From Alcanivorax borkumensis SK2 (GTDB lineage: Bacteria > Pseudomonadota > Gammaproteobacteria > Pseudomonadales > Alcanivoracaceae): 64,000 nucleotides of DNA. The first letter of the stretch is position 1, and every line of letters starts with the position of its first letter. The stretch covers positions 1,089,501 to 1,153,500 of the forward strand of contig NC_008260.1 of assembly GCF_000009365.1 (NCBI RefSeq), read 5' to 3'. Positions 12,857-23,598 of this stretch are shown here, piece after piece. A program made the translations under genes and the position numbers. The notes below the pieces were generated by a model. It saw only the letters and a list, made by a program, of their open reading frames with translations. It did not search any database and was not told the origin of the DNA.

Positions 12857-13088
12857 GGTGGCAGCGCTATCCTGTCTTTATGTTGACCCGGAGTGATCGT
12901 TCCGGTCTCTTATTGTTGCCAAAAATTACGCGATGCCGCTTATATTTGGCATGACTGCTCCCTATACTATGCATTTTCATAATTAAACTACATTGGCTTT
13001 TTTGACTTGGATGGGTGTACGCGGGACCTGTTCGCCTTAGCGCTGTCGAGTTACAGTGCACCAGCCCTTGAAGGGGAGTTGTTTTTCA

Positions 13089-14309
13089 ATGCTGGAATCT
13101 TTGCTTGCGTACCCGGATTTCTGGAAGTACGTCAGTATTCCGTTCATCGCTGGAACCGTCGGTTGGACAACCAACTGGATGGCTGTGCAGATGACTTTCT
13201 ATCCCCTGGAATTTCTGGGTATCCGTCCTTTTTTCGGCTGGCAGGGCATTATCCCCTCCAAGGTGGAAAAAATGGCCGGCATTGTGGTGGATAAGGCGCT
13301 ATCCAAGCTGGGCAGCTTGGATGAATTTTTCCGCGAAATGGAACCGGAAAAAATCGCTGACCACCTCACTCGTACTATCCAGCTCCGTATCGAAGAGTAC
13401 ACCGACGAGGTGATGACCGAACGCAATGCCGTTCTGTGGGAAAACTTGCCTTTGCTGGTGCGCAAACGGGTTTATAGTCGTGCTCGGCGCGCCATTCCTG
13501 CCGTTATGGATAATGTGGTCGACGACATCAGCCGTAATCTTGATAACCTGGTTGACATGAAACATATGGTTATCACCCAGATGAGCGAAGACAAGCAGCT
13601 CATGGTGCAGATGTTCCGCGAAGTGGGTGATCCCGAATTCCGCTTTGTTACTAACTCCGGTCTGTATTTCGGTTTTCTATTTGGCTTAATCCAGGTGCCT
13701 GTATTTATCTTTTTCCCAGAAAACTGGGTGTTGCCACTGTTCGGCTTCATTGTGGGTATTGCGACAAACTGGCTGGCCCTGAACCTGATTTTCCGCCCAC
13801 TGAACCCGATCAAGGTCGGGCCATTCCGGATTCAGGGTTTATTCTTAAAGCGTCAGAAAGATGTGGCTGAGTCCTTTGCTCGTCTCTCCACGGCCAAAGT
13901 GATTACCTTGCACAACATTATGTACCAGGTGGTGAATGGGCCGCGGGGTGATCGCACCAAAGCGTTAATTAAACGTCATCTCAAACCGCTGCTTAATGGT
14001 GGGGTGGTGCGAACCGCCGCCCAGCTTACGGTAGGGCCAGAGGGTTACGCTGACTTGAAAAAAGCGGTGGAAGAGAAGGCCGTGGACTTGGCGGTGGAGC
14101 CTTTTGAGGACCAGGGATTCAACAAAGAGCGGGGTCAGATTGTCGAGCGGCTGATGTCTGAGCGTATGCAGGCATTGAGTTCCGATGAGTTTCAGGATTT
14201 GCTGCGACCGGCTTTTCAGGAAGACGAGTGGATTCTGATTGTGGTCGGCGGCTTTCTTGGCGCCATGGCTGGCCTTTTCCAGCTTGTGTTTATATTTGGG
14301 ATTAGTTGA
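13089..14309 (+). CDS. DUF445 family membrane protein
   Basis: A 406-aa protein of the DUF445 (YheB/YjiN-like) family. It begins with a membrane segment containing the family signature GTVGWTTNWMAVQMTFYPLEFLG. This is repeated later as GIATNWLALNLIFRPLNP, with two hydrophobic stretches near 195-240 and a last membrane helix at the C-terminus (VVGGFLGAMAGLFQLVFIFG). The long middle and C-terminal parts are helical. I start at the ATG at 13089 behind GGGGAG. The next gene begins immediately after the stop, so they are co-transcribed. The family's biochemical role is unknown; an envelope function is generally assumed. Confidence 0.88.
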   Translation: MLESLLAYPDFWKYVSIPFIAGTVGWTTNWMAVQMTFYPLEFLGIRPFFGWQGIIPSKVEKMAGIVVDKALSKLGSLDEFFREMEPEKIADHLTRTIQLRIEEYTDEVMTERNAVLWENLPLLVRKRVYSRARRAIPAVMDNVVDDISRNLDNLVDMKHMVITQMSEDKQLMVQMFREVGDPEFRFVTNSGLYFGFLFGLIQVPVFIFFPENWVLPLFGFIVGIATNWLALNLIFRPLNPIKVGPFRIQGLFLKRQKDVAESFARLSTAKVITLHNIMYQVVNGPRGDRTKALIKRHLKPLLNGGVVRTAAQLTVGPEGYADLKKAVEEKAVDLAVEPFEDQGFNKERGQIVERLMSERMQALSSDEFQDLLRPAFQEDEWILIVVGGFLGAMAGLFQLVFIFGIS

Positions 14310-18270: not shown

Positions 18271-19479
18271 ATGCTTGATGCCTATATCTACGATGGTCTG
18301 CGTACCCCTTTTGGTCGCCATGGCGGCGTTCTGGCATCGGTACGCCCGGATGACCTCTTGGCCGGAGTGATTCGCGAACTGGTACAGCGAAATGGCTTTG
18401 CGGCTTCTCTGTATGAAGATGTTGTCATTGGTAATACTAATCAGGCGGGGGAAGATGCCCGTAATGTGGCTCGTCATGCCGGGTTATTAGCTGGGTTGCC
18501 GCAGTCCGTGGCGGGGATCACCGTGAATAGGTTATGTGGCAGCGGCCTCGCCGCAACATTGGATGCGGCACGTATGGTGACGGTGGGCGAGGGCGAGTTG
18601 ATCATTGCCGGTGGTACGGAATCGATGAGCCGTGCCCCTTATGTAATGGCCAAAGCAGAAAAAGCGTTTAGCCGGGAGATGACAGTTTTCGATAGCACTA
18701 TCGGCGCCCGCTTCCCTAACCCGAAAGTGCTCAAGCAGTTTGGTGCCGATACTATGCCGCAGACGGCACAGAATGTAGCGCACGACCTGGGTATTAGCCG
18801 TGAAGATGCGGATGCTTTTGCTATACAGTCTCAACAACGCTATGAGGTCGCCCGTGAGCAAGGGTTTTATCAGCAGGAAGTGTTACCGGTTACGGTGCCC
18901 CAGGGGGGCAAGGCGACACCACTGCGTGTGGCTGACGACGAACATCCCCGCCCCGGAACCTGCGTTGATAAGTTGCGACAACTGCCTGCTATTGTCGATG
19001 GGGGCATTATTACTGCGGGTAATGCGTCTGGGATAAATGACGGGGCGGCGGCAGTGATTGTGGGTTCGCGTAGGGCTGGTGTGGCGGCGGGTATTGCTCC
19101 CCGTGCTCGAGTTCTGTCTGGTGCGGTTGCCGGAGTGGCGCCTCGCGTTATGGGCCTAGGCCCGGTGGATGCGTGCAACAAGGCATTGGCCCGGGCGGGC
19201 CTGGCGTTAGCTCAGATGGATGTGATTGAAATTAATGAGGCGTTTGCCGCCCAAGTGCTGGGCTGCTGTAAGCAGTTGGGCTTGGCTGGGGATGATGAGC
19301 GCCTGAACCCAAATGGTGGCGCTATTGCTGTCGGCCATCCGTTAGGTGCGTCCGGTGCGCGTTTGGTCTTGACTGCCATGCGTCAGTTGGAGCGAACCCG
19401 CGGTCGTTATGCACTTCTTAGTTTGTGCATTGGCGTAGGTCAGGGCGTTGCCATGGTGCTGGAGAGGGTAGATTCATGA
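18271..19479 (+). CDS. Thiolase (acetyl-CoA acyltransferase, PcaF-like)
   Basis: A 402-aa type I thiolase. Active-site Cys89 lies in NRLCGSG, the His in [12 protein letters not shown] and the second Cys in LCIGVGQG. It is strikingly similar to beta-ketoadipyl-CoA thiolase PcaF in blocks such as [32 protein letters not shown] and [11 protein letters not shown]. It would cleave a 3-ketoacyl-CoA with CoA, or run in reverse. The ATG has GGGAGGA before it. Its stop overlaps the glutaryl-CoA dehydrogenase start by ATGA, so the pair is an operon that may serve dicarboxylic acid or lysine/tryptophan breakdown (glutaryl-CoA to crotonyl-CoA to acetyl-CoA). Confidence 0.92.
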
Positions 19480-20642
19480 GTGTTTTTGTATGGAATGATG
19501 CGCTATTGCTGGAAACTCAGCTCAGCGACGATGAGCGGATGATCCGTGATGCAGCGCAGGATTACTGCCAAAGTAAACTGATGACCAGGGTGCTTGAGGC
19601 GAACCGGCACGAGATTTTTCATCGCGAGATCATGACAGAAATGGGGGCACAGGGGTTTCTTGGATCCACCATTCCTGAGCAATATGGTGGCGCGGGAGTG
19701 AACCACGTTAGCTACGGCTTGGTGGCTCGGGAAGTAGAGCGGGTGGATTCCGGGTATCGCTCCGCCATGAGTGTGCAGTCGTCCCTGGTGATGTTTCCCA
19801 TTTATACCTTTGGCAGTGAAGCGGTGCGCAACAAGTACCTGCCAAAGTTGGCCAGTGGCGAATGGGTGGGGTGTTTTGGTCTTACCGAGCCAGACCACGG
19901 CTCTGACCCGGGTTCCATGAGCACTCGCGCTAAAAAAGTGGATGGTGGTTACCTGTTAAATGGTTCCAAAACGTGGATTACTAATTCGCCAATAGCCGAT
20001 GTGGCGGTGGTGTGGGCGAACCTAGACGGTAAGATCAACGGCTTTGTGGTAGAGCGGGGCTTTGACGGGTTTAGCGCGCCTAAGATTGAAGGCAAGTTCT
20101 CTCTACGGGCATCGATCACTGGTCAGATCATGCTGGATGACTGCTTTGTACCGGAACAAAACCGATTGGACGTGGAGGGCTTAAAGGGGCCCTTCAGTTG
20201 CCTGAACAAAGCGCGCTACGGGATCAGCTGGGGAGCCATGGGTGCGGCTGAATTCTGTTGGCAGGCGGCTCGTCAGTACACTTTGGACCGCAAACAATTT
20301 GGCCGCCCGCTGGCGGCTACCCAGCTGATTCAGAAAAAGCTGGCGGACATGCAGACTGAGATTACCTTAGGTTTGCAAGGGGCGCTGCAATTAGGGCGCT
20401 TGATAGATGCGGGAAACTGGGCGCCGGAAATGGTCTCGTTGATGAAGCGCAATAACTGTGGCAAGGCCATTGATATTGCTCGTCAGGCTCGAGATATGCA
20501 TGGCGGCAATGGCATTAGTGACGAGTATCATGTGATTCGCCACGTAATGAATCTGGAAGCGGTGAATACCTATGAAGGTACCCACGATGTCCATGCCCTG
20601 ATCTTGGGCCGGGCCCAGACCGGGCTGCAAGCATTCGGCTGA
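19476..20642 (+). CDS. gcdH: Glutaryl-CoA dehydrogenase
   Basis: A 388-aa FAD acyl-CoA dehydrogenase that oxidises and decarboxylates glutaryl-CoA to crotonyl-CoA. Typical blocks are the N-terminal [23 protein letters not shown], the signature [34 protein letters not shown] and [17 protein letters not shown], with the catalytic Glu in [17 protein letters not shown] start at the ATG at 19476, which overlaps the thiolase stop; the open frame upstream is the thiolase in another frame. A LysR regulator and CoA transferase, often adjacent in other bacteria, are missing. Confidence 0.95.
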
Positions 20643-20664
20643 TGAGTACCTAGTGTTTAGCCCT

Positions 20665-20693
20665 GGTTATTCTGGTGTTTTGTCAGAATAGCC
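20665..20693 (+). terminator. Probable terminator hairpin after gcdH
   Basis: A 10-bp stem GGTTATTCTG/CAGAATAGCC (one G-U pair) with a 9-base loop, about 20 bases after the gcdH stop. It is followed by GGGGG and a short TTT rather than a full T run. Confidence 0.55.
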
Positions 20694-20986
20694 GGGGGTT
20701 TCCCCTCCTTGCGTTTTCTTCCCCGTTTCACCTCCTTGGTGTTATGTGCGTGTCTGTATCAGGGTGTCACTCTTGGTAACGTGAGAATGCCCCAATGTTG
20801 TACACAGATTTGTTGTCAATGCTCTTTTTCTGAACGAAAAAGTGACAATCTCGTTAAAATCTCTTGGTAAATAGTATAACTATATGATTTATTTAAAGAA
20901 AAAATATAGATCAAAAAATGAACACATCGTCTCGGGGCATGATTTATAGGCGATTATGCTCGCTTTTCTACTGTCTATGCACAGGG

Positions 20987-21009
20987 TTATCCACAAGATC
21001 TGTGGACAA
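20987..21009. promoter_or_regulatory. Pair of opposed DnaA boxes
   Basis: TTATCCACA at 20987-20995 on the plus strand faces TTGTCCACA on the minus strand (21001-21009) across five bases. Both fit the TTWTNCACA-like consensus with at most one change. Confidence 0.65.
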
Positions 21010-21264
21010 TATCTTCGCGTTTTTTGCTGACGTAATTTTTGAATCCATAAAACCAGTGGGTCATGAGGGGATTGCGATCTCTCTGGCGCTTTTACACAAG
21101 CTGATCGTGACTAAGGGGTTTGTTCATTAGGTCAAAGGTGAGTTGTGTGCAGGAGAAAATATAATAATAAGTTATTGAATAATCAGTGCTTTATGATTCG
21201 TTTAAAAATGAACCATTGTGCGCTAAGCGCCTAATTACGGGCGATGCAGATACTTGTGGTCAAG

Positions 21265-21285
21265 TTGTTCACATATTTATCCACA
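21265..21285 (+). promoter_or_regulatory. Tandem DnaA boxes
   Basis: TTGTTCACA (21265-21273) and perfect TTATCCACA (21277-21285) in the same direction, three bases apart. An imperfect inverted copy, TGTGGAGTAA, follows at 21291. Confidence 0.6.
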
Positions 21286-21442
21286 GCTTTTGTGGAGTAA
21301 TCCCAGCAAAGAAAAAACGGCGATGGTCTTGACCTTTTTCAAGGTATCCATATCCATATGTCCTTGATGAAAAACCACACAAGTCGCTGTAGCTACCGTA
21401 AATGCTGGCTTTCGAAGCGTTATCCGAGGCTCGTTAACAGTG

Positions 21443-21451
21443 TTATCCACA
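21443..21451 (+). promoter_or_regulatory. DnaA box
   Basis: Perfect TTATCCACA. An imperfect inverted partner (CGTGGATAG) lies about 7 bases downstream. Confidence 0.6.
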
Positions 21452-21716
21452 GATGCCGTGGATAGAAAAGGCCATGTGGGTAACGTGAACGTGTTTGGAT
21501 AAATGAAGGGAGTAAAGAAAAGGAGTAAAGGAAACTAAGGCGGGCGTGGCACGGTGGCATAAATCGTTAGGTGATGGTCTTGTAGCGATGGAGAGCGCCT
21601 GTGGACTTACGTTACAACCCCCGCTATGTCTGGCCTATGTTGGCGGTGTCGAGAACAATGTCTATTGCGGCATTGCGCTAATGGGTTAAGCCACCACTAG
21701 CGCTGTAATGGAGCAC

Positions 21717-21744
21717 AAAAAAGGCGCCTTTCGGCGCCTTTTTT
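21717..21744 (-). terminator. Bidirectional terminator at the end of the atu operon
   Basis: Perfect 12-bp stem AAAAAAGGCGCC/GGCGCCTTTTTT with a TTTC loop. The A and T runs make it active in both directions. It lies 25 bases beyond the atuH stop. Confidence 0.92.
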
Positions 21745-21768
21745 GCTTTCCTAGATCATCTGGATCGC

Positions 21769-23598
21769 TTAGAAGCGGTACTTGCCACCGTCGATGCCGT
21801 CCTGCGTGGCCTCGTCCAGTTGCTGGTAGCAGCTCTCTCCAGGCAGCAGGGCATAAACCGCATTGTTCTGCTGCTTCAGGTCGTACTTCTGTTCTTTGAG
21901 TTTGTTTTTCTGGTGCTTGAAGGTGCCAGTGGTTTCCATGGCTTCTTCATTGATGCGCAGGAAAACGGGGATGGCATAAGCGGGTAATTCGCGCTTGAGA
22001 TACTCACACAGGCCTTTGAAGTCAAAGTCTTTGTGGTTACCGGTTAGGCGAATCTGGGCCATGCCCGCACGGCCATTGGTGTTAGGAATTTCTACACCGT
22101 AGACCACGGATTCCTGGATACCATCGTAGCCATCGAGAATCTGTTCCACTTCGGTGGTGGATACGTTCTCGCCTTTCCAGCGGAAGGTGTCCCCCAGCCT
22201 ATCCACGAACTGAGCGTGGCGGAAGCCGATGTCGCGCATCATATCGCCGGTGTTGAACCACGCATCACCCTTAGTGAACACATCCCGGTAGATAGATTTC
22301 TCAGTTTTTTCTGGGTCGGTGTAACCATCGAAAGGAGTCTTGTCGGTGATTTCACCGAGCATTAGACCCGCTTCGCCTTTGCCGACTTTAGTCATGTGCC
22401 CTTTGCTATCGCGCACCGGTTCGTCACGTTCTTTGTCGTATTTGACAATGGCGTAGCTCACAGGGGAGAAACCAACGGTGTTGTCAAAGTTGAATATGTT
22501 GGTGAACGCTACGTTGCCCTCAGATGACGCATACAACTCTGCCACCCGCTCAATGCCGAAACGATCCTTGAAGTCTTTCCAGATGCTCGGACGCAGACCA
22601 TTACCTACAATGGTGTGGATCTTGTTGTCTTTGTCGGTGGGTTTTTCTGGCTGTTCATGCAGATAGCGGCACAGCTCACCCACGTAACCGAAAGCGGTAC
22701 AGTTGTGGCGTCGAATATCGTCCCAGAAACCGCTGGCGGAGAATTTACGTGCAAGGACAACGGCGCCAGCCGGAGCGATGACCGAGGACCAGCAGATCAC
22801 CATACCGGTGGCATGATAAAACGGCAGGGTAGTGTAGATACGATCATTTTTGGTCAGGTGCAAGGCAGAGAAACCGAAAGCACCATAGGCTTTTTCCCAG
22901 CGGCCGTGGTTGAAGACAACCGCTTTGGGTAGGCCGGTAGTGCCGGAGGTGTAGATGTAGAACAACGGGTCACGCAAGAAGGTTTGCTTAGTGGACGCGG
23001 GGTTCTCGCTGGAACAATCACGGCTTTCGCTGGCCAGATTCTTGTAGCCGCTCGGTACGTCACCGGGGTTATCTAAGGTGTTCTGATCTGCGAAGCAGAA
23101 GAAGTTGTCTTTAAGGTCCAGATCACCGCGAACTTCTTCCACGGCATCAACCAGTTCTTCACCAATAATGGCAGCTTTGGGCTTCACCAAGTTGAAACTA
23201 TGGATCAGCACTTTACCCCGTTGGGAAGTGTTGATAAGGGCCGCACAGACGCCGAGTTTAGCGCAGGCGACAACGGTGGCAAGCAGCTCGGGGCGATTTT
23301 CTATATTGACCGCAATGGTATCGCCTTTTTTCAGGCCGATAGAGGCCAGGTAGTCTGCCAGGCGGTTAGCCCAGGCGTTAAACTGCTTATAGGTAAGTTC
23401 TGTGTCTTCGTAGATCACGGCAGCACCATTAGGGTTCATGCTGGTGGCGCGCTCAATGGCAACGCCCAGCCCCAATGGTTTGCTGGTATCGGTGATTTTC
23501 GTCAGCTTTGAGCCCTTGATCAGGCCGGGAAGATGAGTGATCACCTCTGGGATCTTGGACAGAAGCTTGGGCAACGTGATGATGTCGGCGTTGCTCAT
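21769..23598 (-). CDS. atuH: Acyl-CoA synthetase of the atu cluster (FATP/FadD6 type)
   Basis: A 609-aa AMP-forming acyl-CoA ligase of the very-long-chain/FATP subgroup. It contains the P-loop YIYTSGTTGLPKA (about residue 220), TTLPFYHATGM, ELYASSEGN, FNTGDMMR and DRLGDTFRWKGENVSTTEVE, the last being the FATP signature. It would activate citronellate, geranate or other long or branched acids to CoA thioesters for the neighbouring enzymes. In P. aeruginosa a synthetase of this type (AtuH) closes the atu cluster. The start has GGAG 5 bases before it. A 216-base gap upstream contains a near-copy of the proposed AtuR operator (23653-23670) and a GC-rich hairpin (23688-23705), so it may have its own promoter. 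Confidence 0.88.
   Translation of the reverse strand: MSNADIITLPKLLSKIPEVITHLPGLIKGSKLTKITDTSKPLGLGVAIERATSMNPNGAAVIYEDTELTYKQFNAWANRLADYLASIGLKKGDTIAVNIENRPELLATVVACAKLGVCAALINTSQRGKVLIHSFNLVKPKAAIIGEELVDAVEEVRGDLDLKDNFFCFADQNTLDNPGDVPSGYKNLASESRDCSSENPASTKQTFLRDPLFYIYTSGTTGLPKAVVFNHGRWEKAYGAFGFSALHLTKNDRIYTTLPFYHATGMVICWSSVIAPAGAVVLARKFSASGFWDDIRRHNCTAFGYVGELCRYLHEQPEKPTDKDNKIHTIVGNGLRPSIWKDFKDRFGIERVAELYASSEGNVAFTNIFNFDNTVGFSPVSYAIVKYDKERDEPVRDSKGHMTKVGKGEAGLMLGEITDKTPFDGYTDPEKTEKSIYRDVFTKGDAWFNTGDMMRDIGFRHAQFVDRLGDTFRWKGENVSTTEVEQILDGYDGIQESVVYGVEIPNTNGRAGMAQIRLTGNHKDFDFKGLCEYLKRELPAYAIPVFLRINEEAMETTGTFKHQKNKLKEQKYDLKQQNNAVYALLPGESCYQQLDEATQDGIDGGKYRF

What the first reader, a model, noticed from the sequence alone, without database searches (positions are those of the whole stretch)
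20798..21451. DnaA-box cluster in a 1.1-kb gene-free region away from dnaA
Three perfect TTATCCACA boxes, one opposed TTGTCCACA and three one-change boxes lie within about 650 bases, beside AT-rich tracts and several GATC sites. This many boxes are not expected by chance. The region could be the chromosome origin at an unusual address, a second origin-like site, or a DnaA-titrating (datA-like) or DnaA-reactivating (DARS-like) locus. Against a normal origin: flanking genes point inwards, and no dnaA, dnaN, gidA or rpmH is near.
Basis: partly seen in the sequence, partly recalled or inferred. Interest (0 to 1): 0.75.

Follow-up and report, generated by a model that had tools for sequence, protein, structure and literature searches.

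The report
Tandem DnaA-recharging (DARS-like) DNA array
This gene-free stretch of a marine bacterium's chromosome looks like three side-by-side copies of the DNA switch that Escherichia coli uses to recharge its replication-starter protein DnaA, with bending-protein sites at fixed distances; it does not look like a replication origin.

Summary
The box cluster is real and more than chance. It is not an origin: sampled GC skew changes sign only at dnaA and near a dif-like site at 1.535 Mb; the cluster lies at 1.110 Mb of 3.12 Mb (probably Alcanivorax borkumensis SK2). The boxes form three modules, III-3 bp-II (TTATCCACA)-5 bp-inverted I, the geometry of the E. coli DARS1 and DARS2 cores, which recharge ADP-DnaA; datA lacks it. 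Modules 1 and 2 are tandem units 290 bp apart: outer box near -176, IHF-consensus site at -97/-98, core; unit 1 also has a Fis-consensus site at -66, kept in 13 of 13 genomes (this one included). Module 3 is a core alone. The array persists in the genus, also beside other genes, 34-39% of the chromosome from dnaA in the five genomes measured. Among 63 box I/II pairs in other families, IHF motifs sit at -95..-101 in 22 and Fis motifs at -65..-67 in 23 (best other windows 2 and 4). Best reading: a tandem DARS2-type DnaA-reactivating array, a new variant of a known kind, with Fis between core and IHF (E. coli: IHF between). Biochemical function is inferred, not shown.

The parts
20643..21768 (.). 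gene-free region between two convergent genes, holding the DARS-like array
20798..20806 (+). unit 1 outer DnaA box TTGTACACA, 177 bp before core 1
   Evidence: TTKTNCACA at -176/-177 in 13 of 13 unit-1 loci (window included) and at no other place on that strand of the 230 bp scanned
20877..20889 (+). unit 1 IHF-consensus site TAACTATATGATT (1 mismatch), 98 bp before core 1
20909..20923 (+). unit 1 Fis-consensus site GATCAAAAAATGAAC, 66 bp before core 1
   Evidence: 0 mismatches in 13 of 13 unit-1 loci at -65/-66; shuffled motif 0 of 300
20975..21009 (+). core 1: box III CTATGCACA -3- box II TTATCCACA -5- inverted box I TTGTCCACA
21090..21098 (+). unit 2 outer DnaA box TTTTACACA, 175 bp before core 2
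   Evidence: at -175/-176 in 13 of 13 unit-2 loci
21168..21180 (+). unit 2 IHF-consensus site TAAGTTATTGAAT (1 mismatch), 97 bp before core 2; a second, (-) match at 21181-21193 is shared by the three closest sequences only
21265..21299 (+). core 2: TTGTTCACA -3- TTATCCACA -5- inverted TACTCCACA
21431..21465 (+). core 3: TCGTTAACA -3- TTATCCACA -5- inverted CTATCCACG (no IHF match upstream on the core's strand)
19425..20642 (+). left neighbour: acyl-CoA (glutaryl-CoA type) dehydrogenase-like gene; name from my reading of the sequence, not from a family search
21769..23598 (-). right neighbour: acyl-CoA synthetase (FadD-like) gene, used as synteny anchor; name from my reading of the sequence

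Best explanation
A chromosomal DnaA-reactivating locus of the DARS2 type, built as a tandem array. Each core would place two ADP-DnaA molecules head to head on boxes I and II, steadied by a third on box III, so that ADP is released and apo-DnaA reloads ATP. IHF (at -97/-98) and, for unit 1, Fis (at -66) would bend the flank and gate this in the cell cycle. Shown here: box geometry, consensus sites and their fixed positions, conservation, presence of IHF and Fis homologues, lack of origin signals. Inferred from E. coli: protein binding, ADP release and effect on initiation timing.
For: Module geometry (offsets 12 and 14) is identical to the E. coli K-12 DARS1 and DARS2 cores and absent from the datA stretch. 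Head-to-head boxes I/II are described as functionally essential for DARS (PMC10380432 passages; also PMC8682772 passages). With gaps of 0-30 bp allowed, 14 of 14 TTATCCACA/TGTGNANAA inverted pairs in 17 same-genus genomes have a 5-bp gap (13 of them are at this locus in relatives, so they are not independent). The relaxed 5-bp pair occurs 167 times in 57 genomes against 13 for the reversed pattern. IHF consensus within 1 mismatch at -97..-99 in 23 of 33 pooled cores, other 3-bp windows at most 4, shuffled motif 0 of 300; Fis 13 of 13 in unit 1. Wider test on the 63 pair sites of the order's other families: box III at gap 3 in 24 (other gaps 0-14: at most 1), IHF at -95..-101 in 22 (other windows at most 2, far side at most 3), Fis at -65..-67 in 23 (others at most 4, far side at most 1), shuffled motifs 0 of 300 each. 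Fis homologue 59% and IHF-beta homologue 71% identical in this genome; a second, weaker Bac_DnaA-domain match (272-aa frame) is probably Hda.
Against: No biochemistry or binding data. IHF and Fis sites are consensus matches. 10 of 33 pooled cores lack an IHF match within one mismatch at that place; for unit 1 alone (8 of 13) 2 of 300 shuffled motifs did as well; core 3 has no IHF match in 10 of 10 loci and a full Fis match at -65 in only 2 of 10; unit 2 has no full Fis match at -66 in 13 of 13. In other families 28 of 63 pair sites have neither motif at its place, though part of the 63 must be chance pairs (reversed pattern: 11 in those genomes). IHF/Fis order differs from E. coli DARS2 (IHF -87/-71, Fis -125). 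In 17 of 36 sequences the stretch next to this fadD carries no cluster; some of these are second fadD copies, three genomes with cores elsewhere were read (L153, L154, L157), the rest were not located.
Confidence: 0.83

Rival explanations
1. A DnaA-titration or DnaA-inactivation locus (datA-like or like the B. subtilis box clusters): boxes bind DnaA and lower the amount free or ATP-bound.
For: Many high-affinity boxes plus IHF-consensus sites; datA also uses IHF (PMC4245941 passage).
Against: The E. coli datA stretch has no core of this geometry; E. coli datA lies 10% of the chromosome from oriC by the map positions in PMC5010248 (passages), this locus at 34-39% from dnaA. Titration alone does not demand exact 3- and 5-bp spacing with an inverted partner (inference).
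Confidence: 0.12
2. A second or former replication origin.
For: AT-rich gene-free DNA with clustered boxes.
Against: GC skew stays positive through the window and in the sampled stretches on both sides; sign changes only at dnaA and near the dif-like site at 1.535 Mb. The genomes measured keep the locus far from dnaA. The boxes form inverted pairs, the DARS arrangement, not head-to-tail runs as at oriC (PMC10380432 passage).
Confidence: 0.02
3. A transcription control region for the flanking genes, regulated by DnaA, IHF and Fis.
For: DnaA, IHF and Fis also regulate promoters (general knowledge).
Against: Both neighbours end at the region, so neither should have its promoter there. The array lies beside other genes in G008 and G002. 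No Rfam family matches the region at gathering score.
Confidence: 0.03

Closest known systems
Escherichia coli DARS2 (rppH-mutH interval)
   Same: Three-box core with identical spacing and orientation; the regulatory flank is on the box III side, with IHF consensus within about 90 bp and a Fis consensus.
   Different: Here two IHF-core units plus a third core lie in tandem; Fis (-66) lies between core and IHF (-98), whereas in E. coli the IHF matches (-87/-71) lie between core and Fis match (-125); neighbouring genes differ.
Escherichia coli DARS1 (bioD-uvrB interval)
   Same: Same core geometry; similar distance from the origin: DARS1 33% of the chromosome by map positions in PMC5010248, here 34-39%.
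   Different: DARS1 shows a single core, and no IHF match within one mismatch between bioD and uvrB.
Escherichia coli datA
   Same: Non-coding DnaA-box cluster away from oriC with an IHF site (paper passages).
   Different: No III-3-II-5-I module in the 6-kb stretch scanned.
DARS2 homologues of E. coli-proximal species (Figure 8 legend of PMC8682772)
   Same: Conserved core with Fis-overlapping flanks, as the paper states.
   Different: The eight species named in the legend, E. coli itself among them (passages read), include no Alcanivorax; I did not fetch their sequences.

Membership tests
DARS | Core of three DnaA boxes, I and II head to head, III next to II | tested here: met
   three modules with E. 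coli offsets; 5-bp gap in 14 of 14 pairs of 17 genus genomes
DARS | Non-coding, away from oriC, conserved position relative to oriC | tested here: met
   1,126-bp gene-free region; 34.0-39.2% of the contig from dnaA, same arm, in 5 genomes: own plus 4 of the 8 (G004 left out for unknown contig length; G030, G033, G040 because the locus was not identified); arithmetic by hand; in G029 the locus identity is inferred
DARS2 | IHF sites in the flank at a set distance from the core | tested here: met
   consensus only: 23 of 33 pooled cores at -97..-99, 22 of 63 pair sites in other families at -95..-101; 0 of 10 for core 3
DARS2 | Fis sites in the flank | tested here: met
   consensus only: unit 1 13 of 13 at -65/-66; 23 of 63 pair sites in other families; unit 2 0 of 13, core 3 2 of 10
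DARS2 | E. coli order core-IHF-Fis with E. coli spacing | tested here: not met
   order is core-Fis-IHF; this bars calling it an E. coli DARS2 orthologue, not DARS-type function
DARS | Releases ADP from ADP-DnaA | not testable with these tools
   needs purified proteins
DARS | Extra copies cause over-initiation; deletion lowers ATP-DnaA | not testable with these tools
   needs strains
datA | Origin-proximal, IHF-dependent ATP-DnaA hydrolysis | tested here: inconclusive
   not origin-proximal; hydrolysis not testable
oriC | GC-skew sign change and origin gene neighbourhood | tested here: not met

The most novel reading that the evidence does not exclude
The order that contains Alcanivorax has its own DARS2-type unit with fixed geometry (core; Fis at about -66; IHF at about -98; in Alcanivoracaceae also an outer box at about -176), in which Fis sits between core and IHF, the reverse of E. 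coli; some lineages multiplied it into arrays (three cores here, five in G053) that act as cooperative DnaA-recharging stations. E. coli DARS2's boxes IV-VI, reported as dispensable, may include a degenerate same-orientation core-like module 316 bp from the core that could be the remnant of such an array.
Probability: 0.5. Interest if true: 0.75.

Novelty: new variant of a known kind. Interest (0 to 1): 0.62.

Why it matters
In the paper passages I could read, DARS function and its IHF/Fis control come from E. coli and, by sequence, its near relatives. A fixed and different IHF/Fis geometry in another order gives a natural spacing experiment, a simple pattern for finding DARS sites by sequence, and a tandem array that lets one ask whether several cores act additively, cooperatively or as a backup.

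Tried and rejected
Origin: rejected on sampled GC skew, dif-like site and gene context. Plasmid-derived element: 'distant' blastn of the region against 72,556 plasmids found nothing. Structured RNA: Rfam at gathering score found only two tRNAs in the window. Transcription control of neighbours: they converge. GATC enrichment: none. A second, unlinked cluster of three perfect boxes at C1:2361900-2362035 was examined and is not of DARS geometry.

Papers: searches for Alcanivorax with DnaA box (2 papers), A. borkumensis with origin of replication (11) or GC skew (9), DnaA-reactivating with Pseudomonas and DARS (2), DnaA rejuvenat* with Pseudomonas (0) and DARS1/DARS2/datA/DnaA box (24) listed no title on DARS sites in this order. 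Two wide searches were capped lists (15 of 285; 8 of 1,529, none of the 8 with DARS2) and say little, as does (15 of 26 listed). PMC10380432 cites Fujimitsu et al. 2009 for DARS-like sequences in many proteobacteria; that paper is not held, so I do not know whether it lists this order. Papers were seen as search listings or passages only; none was read whole.

Selections to know: one search pooled 33 cores (13 unit 1, 13 unit 2, 5 other-clade first cores, 2 of locus B). Left out: the 10 unit-3 cores (tested apart, 0 IHF), second cores of L104 and L106 and both cores of L154 (seen, none with IHF at -97..-99), and L105, L122, L126 (not tested). In some searches I first took 31 of the 63 pair sites, picked by eye for TTATCCACA-like letters: IHF 19, Fis 13, box III within one mismatch 20 in the gap scan (19 after the strand was chosen). 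To remove that choice I then read the other 32 (and L155): IHF 3, Fis 10, box III 4; the report quotes all 63. Strand was set by boxes III and II only. The 63 hold one tandem triplet in G051 and five cores in G053, so they are not all independent.

Full report
WHERE. The window is bases 1,089,501-1,153,500 of a single 3,120,143-base contig whose dnaA gene starts the record. That length is, from memory, the Alcanivorax borkumensis SK2 chromosome; no call named the genome, but the closest named relatives of the neighbouring gene are Alcanivorax species.

OBSERVATION. The boxes are as described, in a 1,126-bp region without ORFs of 80 aa or more, between two genes that both end at it. Three perfect boxes within 456 bp were reached in 0.025% of 20,000 random placements of the genome's 32 perfect boxes.

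NOT AN ORIGIN. In 60 stretches sampled round the chromosome GC skew is positive from 0 to about 1.47 Mb and negative from about 1.51 Mb to the end. Skew is positive in 16 of 16 4-kb steps of the window. The cluster, at 1.110 Mb, sits about 72% of the way from dnaA to that site.

GEOMETRY. The perfect boxes are each the middle of a 35-bp module: box III, 3 bp, box II (TTATCCACA), 5 bp, inverted box I. Modules start at 20975, 21265 and 21431 and are the only ones in the window at the threshold used; 8 shuffled windows gave none. The same scan finds the DARS1 core (L147, 2608) and DARS2 core (L148, 2136) of E. coli K-12 with the same offsets, and none in the datA stretch. The head-to-head pair I/II is described as essential for ADP release, with box III stimulating (PMC10380432 passages; see also PMC8682772 passages). 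In this genome the pair occurs at 6 places within 3 mismatches (reversed pattern: 1); three are this cluster. With gaps of 0-30 bp allowed, 14 of 14 exact pairs in 17 genus genomes have a 5-bp gap, reversed pattern 0; 13 of the 14 are at this locus in relatives (12 by fetched loci; G005 by spacing), so they share descent. In 57 genomes the relaxed pair occurs 167 times against 13 for the reversed pattern; 55 of 57 have at least one.

CONSERVATION. The stretch beside the fadD-like gene holds a box cluster in 19 of 36 sequences read (window and 35 loci); 18 of the 35 loci have at least one full module. Of the 17 without, one had only 29 bp of flank and some are second fadD copies from genomes that also gave a first one. 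The left neighbour was found next to fadD in L093 and L094 (and L064, L065, apparently the same genomes) of 58 loci scanned; short loci could not show it. Module starts keep spacings of 281-292 and 158-168 bp in the Alcanivorax loci listed, except L096 (270 bp). In an 11-sequence alignment, box II columns are invariant at 23 of 27 positions, box I 18 of 27, box III 12 of 27, the rest 116 of 725. The cluster can lie elsewhere: in G008 between two other genes, in G002 beside a relative of one of them; in G029 two cores lie near a gene similar to window 13056-14309. Distance from dnaA, in the direction dnaA is read, is 35.6% (G000), 37.5% (G006), 34.0% (G008), 38.5% (G014) and 39.2% (G029) of the contig (arithmetic by hand; four further genomes were not usable). 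Map positions in PMC5010248 (passages) put DARS1 33%, DARS2 21% and datA 10% from oriC.

UNIT ANATOMY. Before core 1: outer box TTGTACACA (-177), IHF consensus TAACTATATGATT (-98, 1 mismatch), Fis consensus GATCAAAAAATGAAC (-66, exact). Before core 2: outer box TTTTACACA (-175), IHF TAAGTTATTGAAT (-97, 1 mismatch). Across 13 genomes, this one included, the outer box is found in 13 of 13 for unit 1 and 13 of 13 for unit 2 at -175..-177 and nowhere else on that strand of 230 bp; Fis in 13 of 13 for unit 1 (shuffled 0 of 300), none of 13 at that place for unit 2; IHF within one mismatch in 8 of 13 (shuffled 2 of 300) and 8 of 13 (0 of 300). Pooled with five first cores of other clades and two copies of an unlinked locus, IHF at -97..-99 is 23 of 33, other 3-bp windows averaging 0.12 with a maximum of 4; shuffled motifs 0 of 300. 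Core 3 has no IHF match on its strand in 10 of 10. The genome encodes Fis-like (59%) and IHF-beta-like (71%) proteins.

WIDER TEST. The relaxed I/II pair occurs at 63 places in 20 of 21 genomes from other families of the order, reversed pattern 11. I read the flanks of all 63, the first 31 being chosen by eye (see Tried and rejected). Box III within one mismatch lies exactly 3 bp from box II in 24 of 63, other gaps 0-14 giving at most 1. IHF consensus at -95..-101 in 22 of 63 (other windows at most 2; far side of the core at most 3; shuffled 0 of 300) and Fis consensus at -65..-67 in 23 of 63 (others at most 4; far side at most 1; shuffled 0 of 300); 35 of 63 have one or both; the outer box in only 2. 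So core, Fis and IHF form a unit with fixed geometry well beyond Alcanivorax, though not at every pair site. In E. coli DARS2 the nearest matches are IHF at -87 and -71 and Fis at -125: same side of the core, opposite order.

OTHER SITES. The genome has an unlinked single unit at 873,904 (outer box -177, IHF -126 and -98, core) beside a purC-like gene, kept in G014, and a bare core at 1,621,070 near the terminus, with no Fis match and no IHF match within one mismatch. G053 has five cores within about 0.9 kb, 4 of 5 with a Fis match at -65 but none with IHF at -98.

READING. Best explanation: a tandem DARS2-type locus that regenerates ATP-DnaA under IHF and Fis control. Sequence anatomy and conservation are shown; binding, ADP release and timing effects are inferred from E. 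coli. Titration or datA-like action is the main rival and would be separated by the sign of the deletion effect.

Noticed in passing
G000:C1:2361900-2362035 (L048:9900-10035): Another cluster of three perfect TTATCCACA boxes beside a penicillin-binding-protein-like gene and a stretch with ParA/ParB-like genes (names from reading the translations); no DARS geometry.
   Followed up: partly
G000:C1:873904-873938 (L150:4905-4939): Unlinked single DARS-like unit with outer box at -177, IHF matches at -126 and -98 and a full core, beside a purC-like gene; kept in G014 (L158).
   Followed up: partly
G000:C1:1621070-1621104 (L151:5071-5105): Bare DARS-like core near the terminus between a ParA-like and a glutathione-reductase-like gene; in G006 it is present twice within what looks like a 3-kb tandem duplication (L156).
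   Followed up: partly
L155:4247-5187 (G053): Five DARS-like cores in a row in one stretch of another family, 4 of 5 with a Fis match at -65.
   Followed up: partly
L148:2452-2486 (E. coli K-12): A degenerate core-like module in the same orientation as, and 316 bp from, the DARS2 core; it may overlap the boxes IV-VI reported as dispensable.
   Followed up: no
window 20766-20780: Dyad GTCACTCTTGGTAAC about 200 bp before core 1, nearly invariant in the 11-sequence alignment; binding protein unknown.
   Followed up: no
window 20814-20847: Conserved TGTCAATG ... TGACA block between outer box and IHF site of unit 1; role unknown.
   Followed up: no
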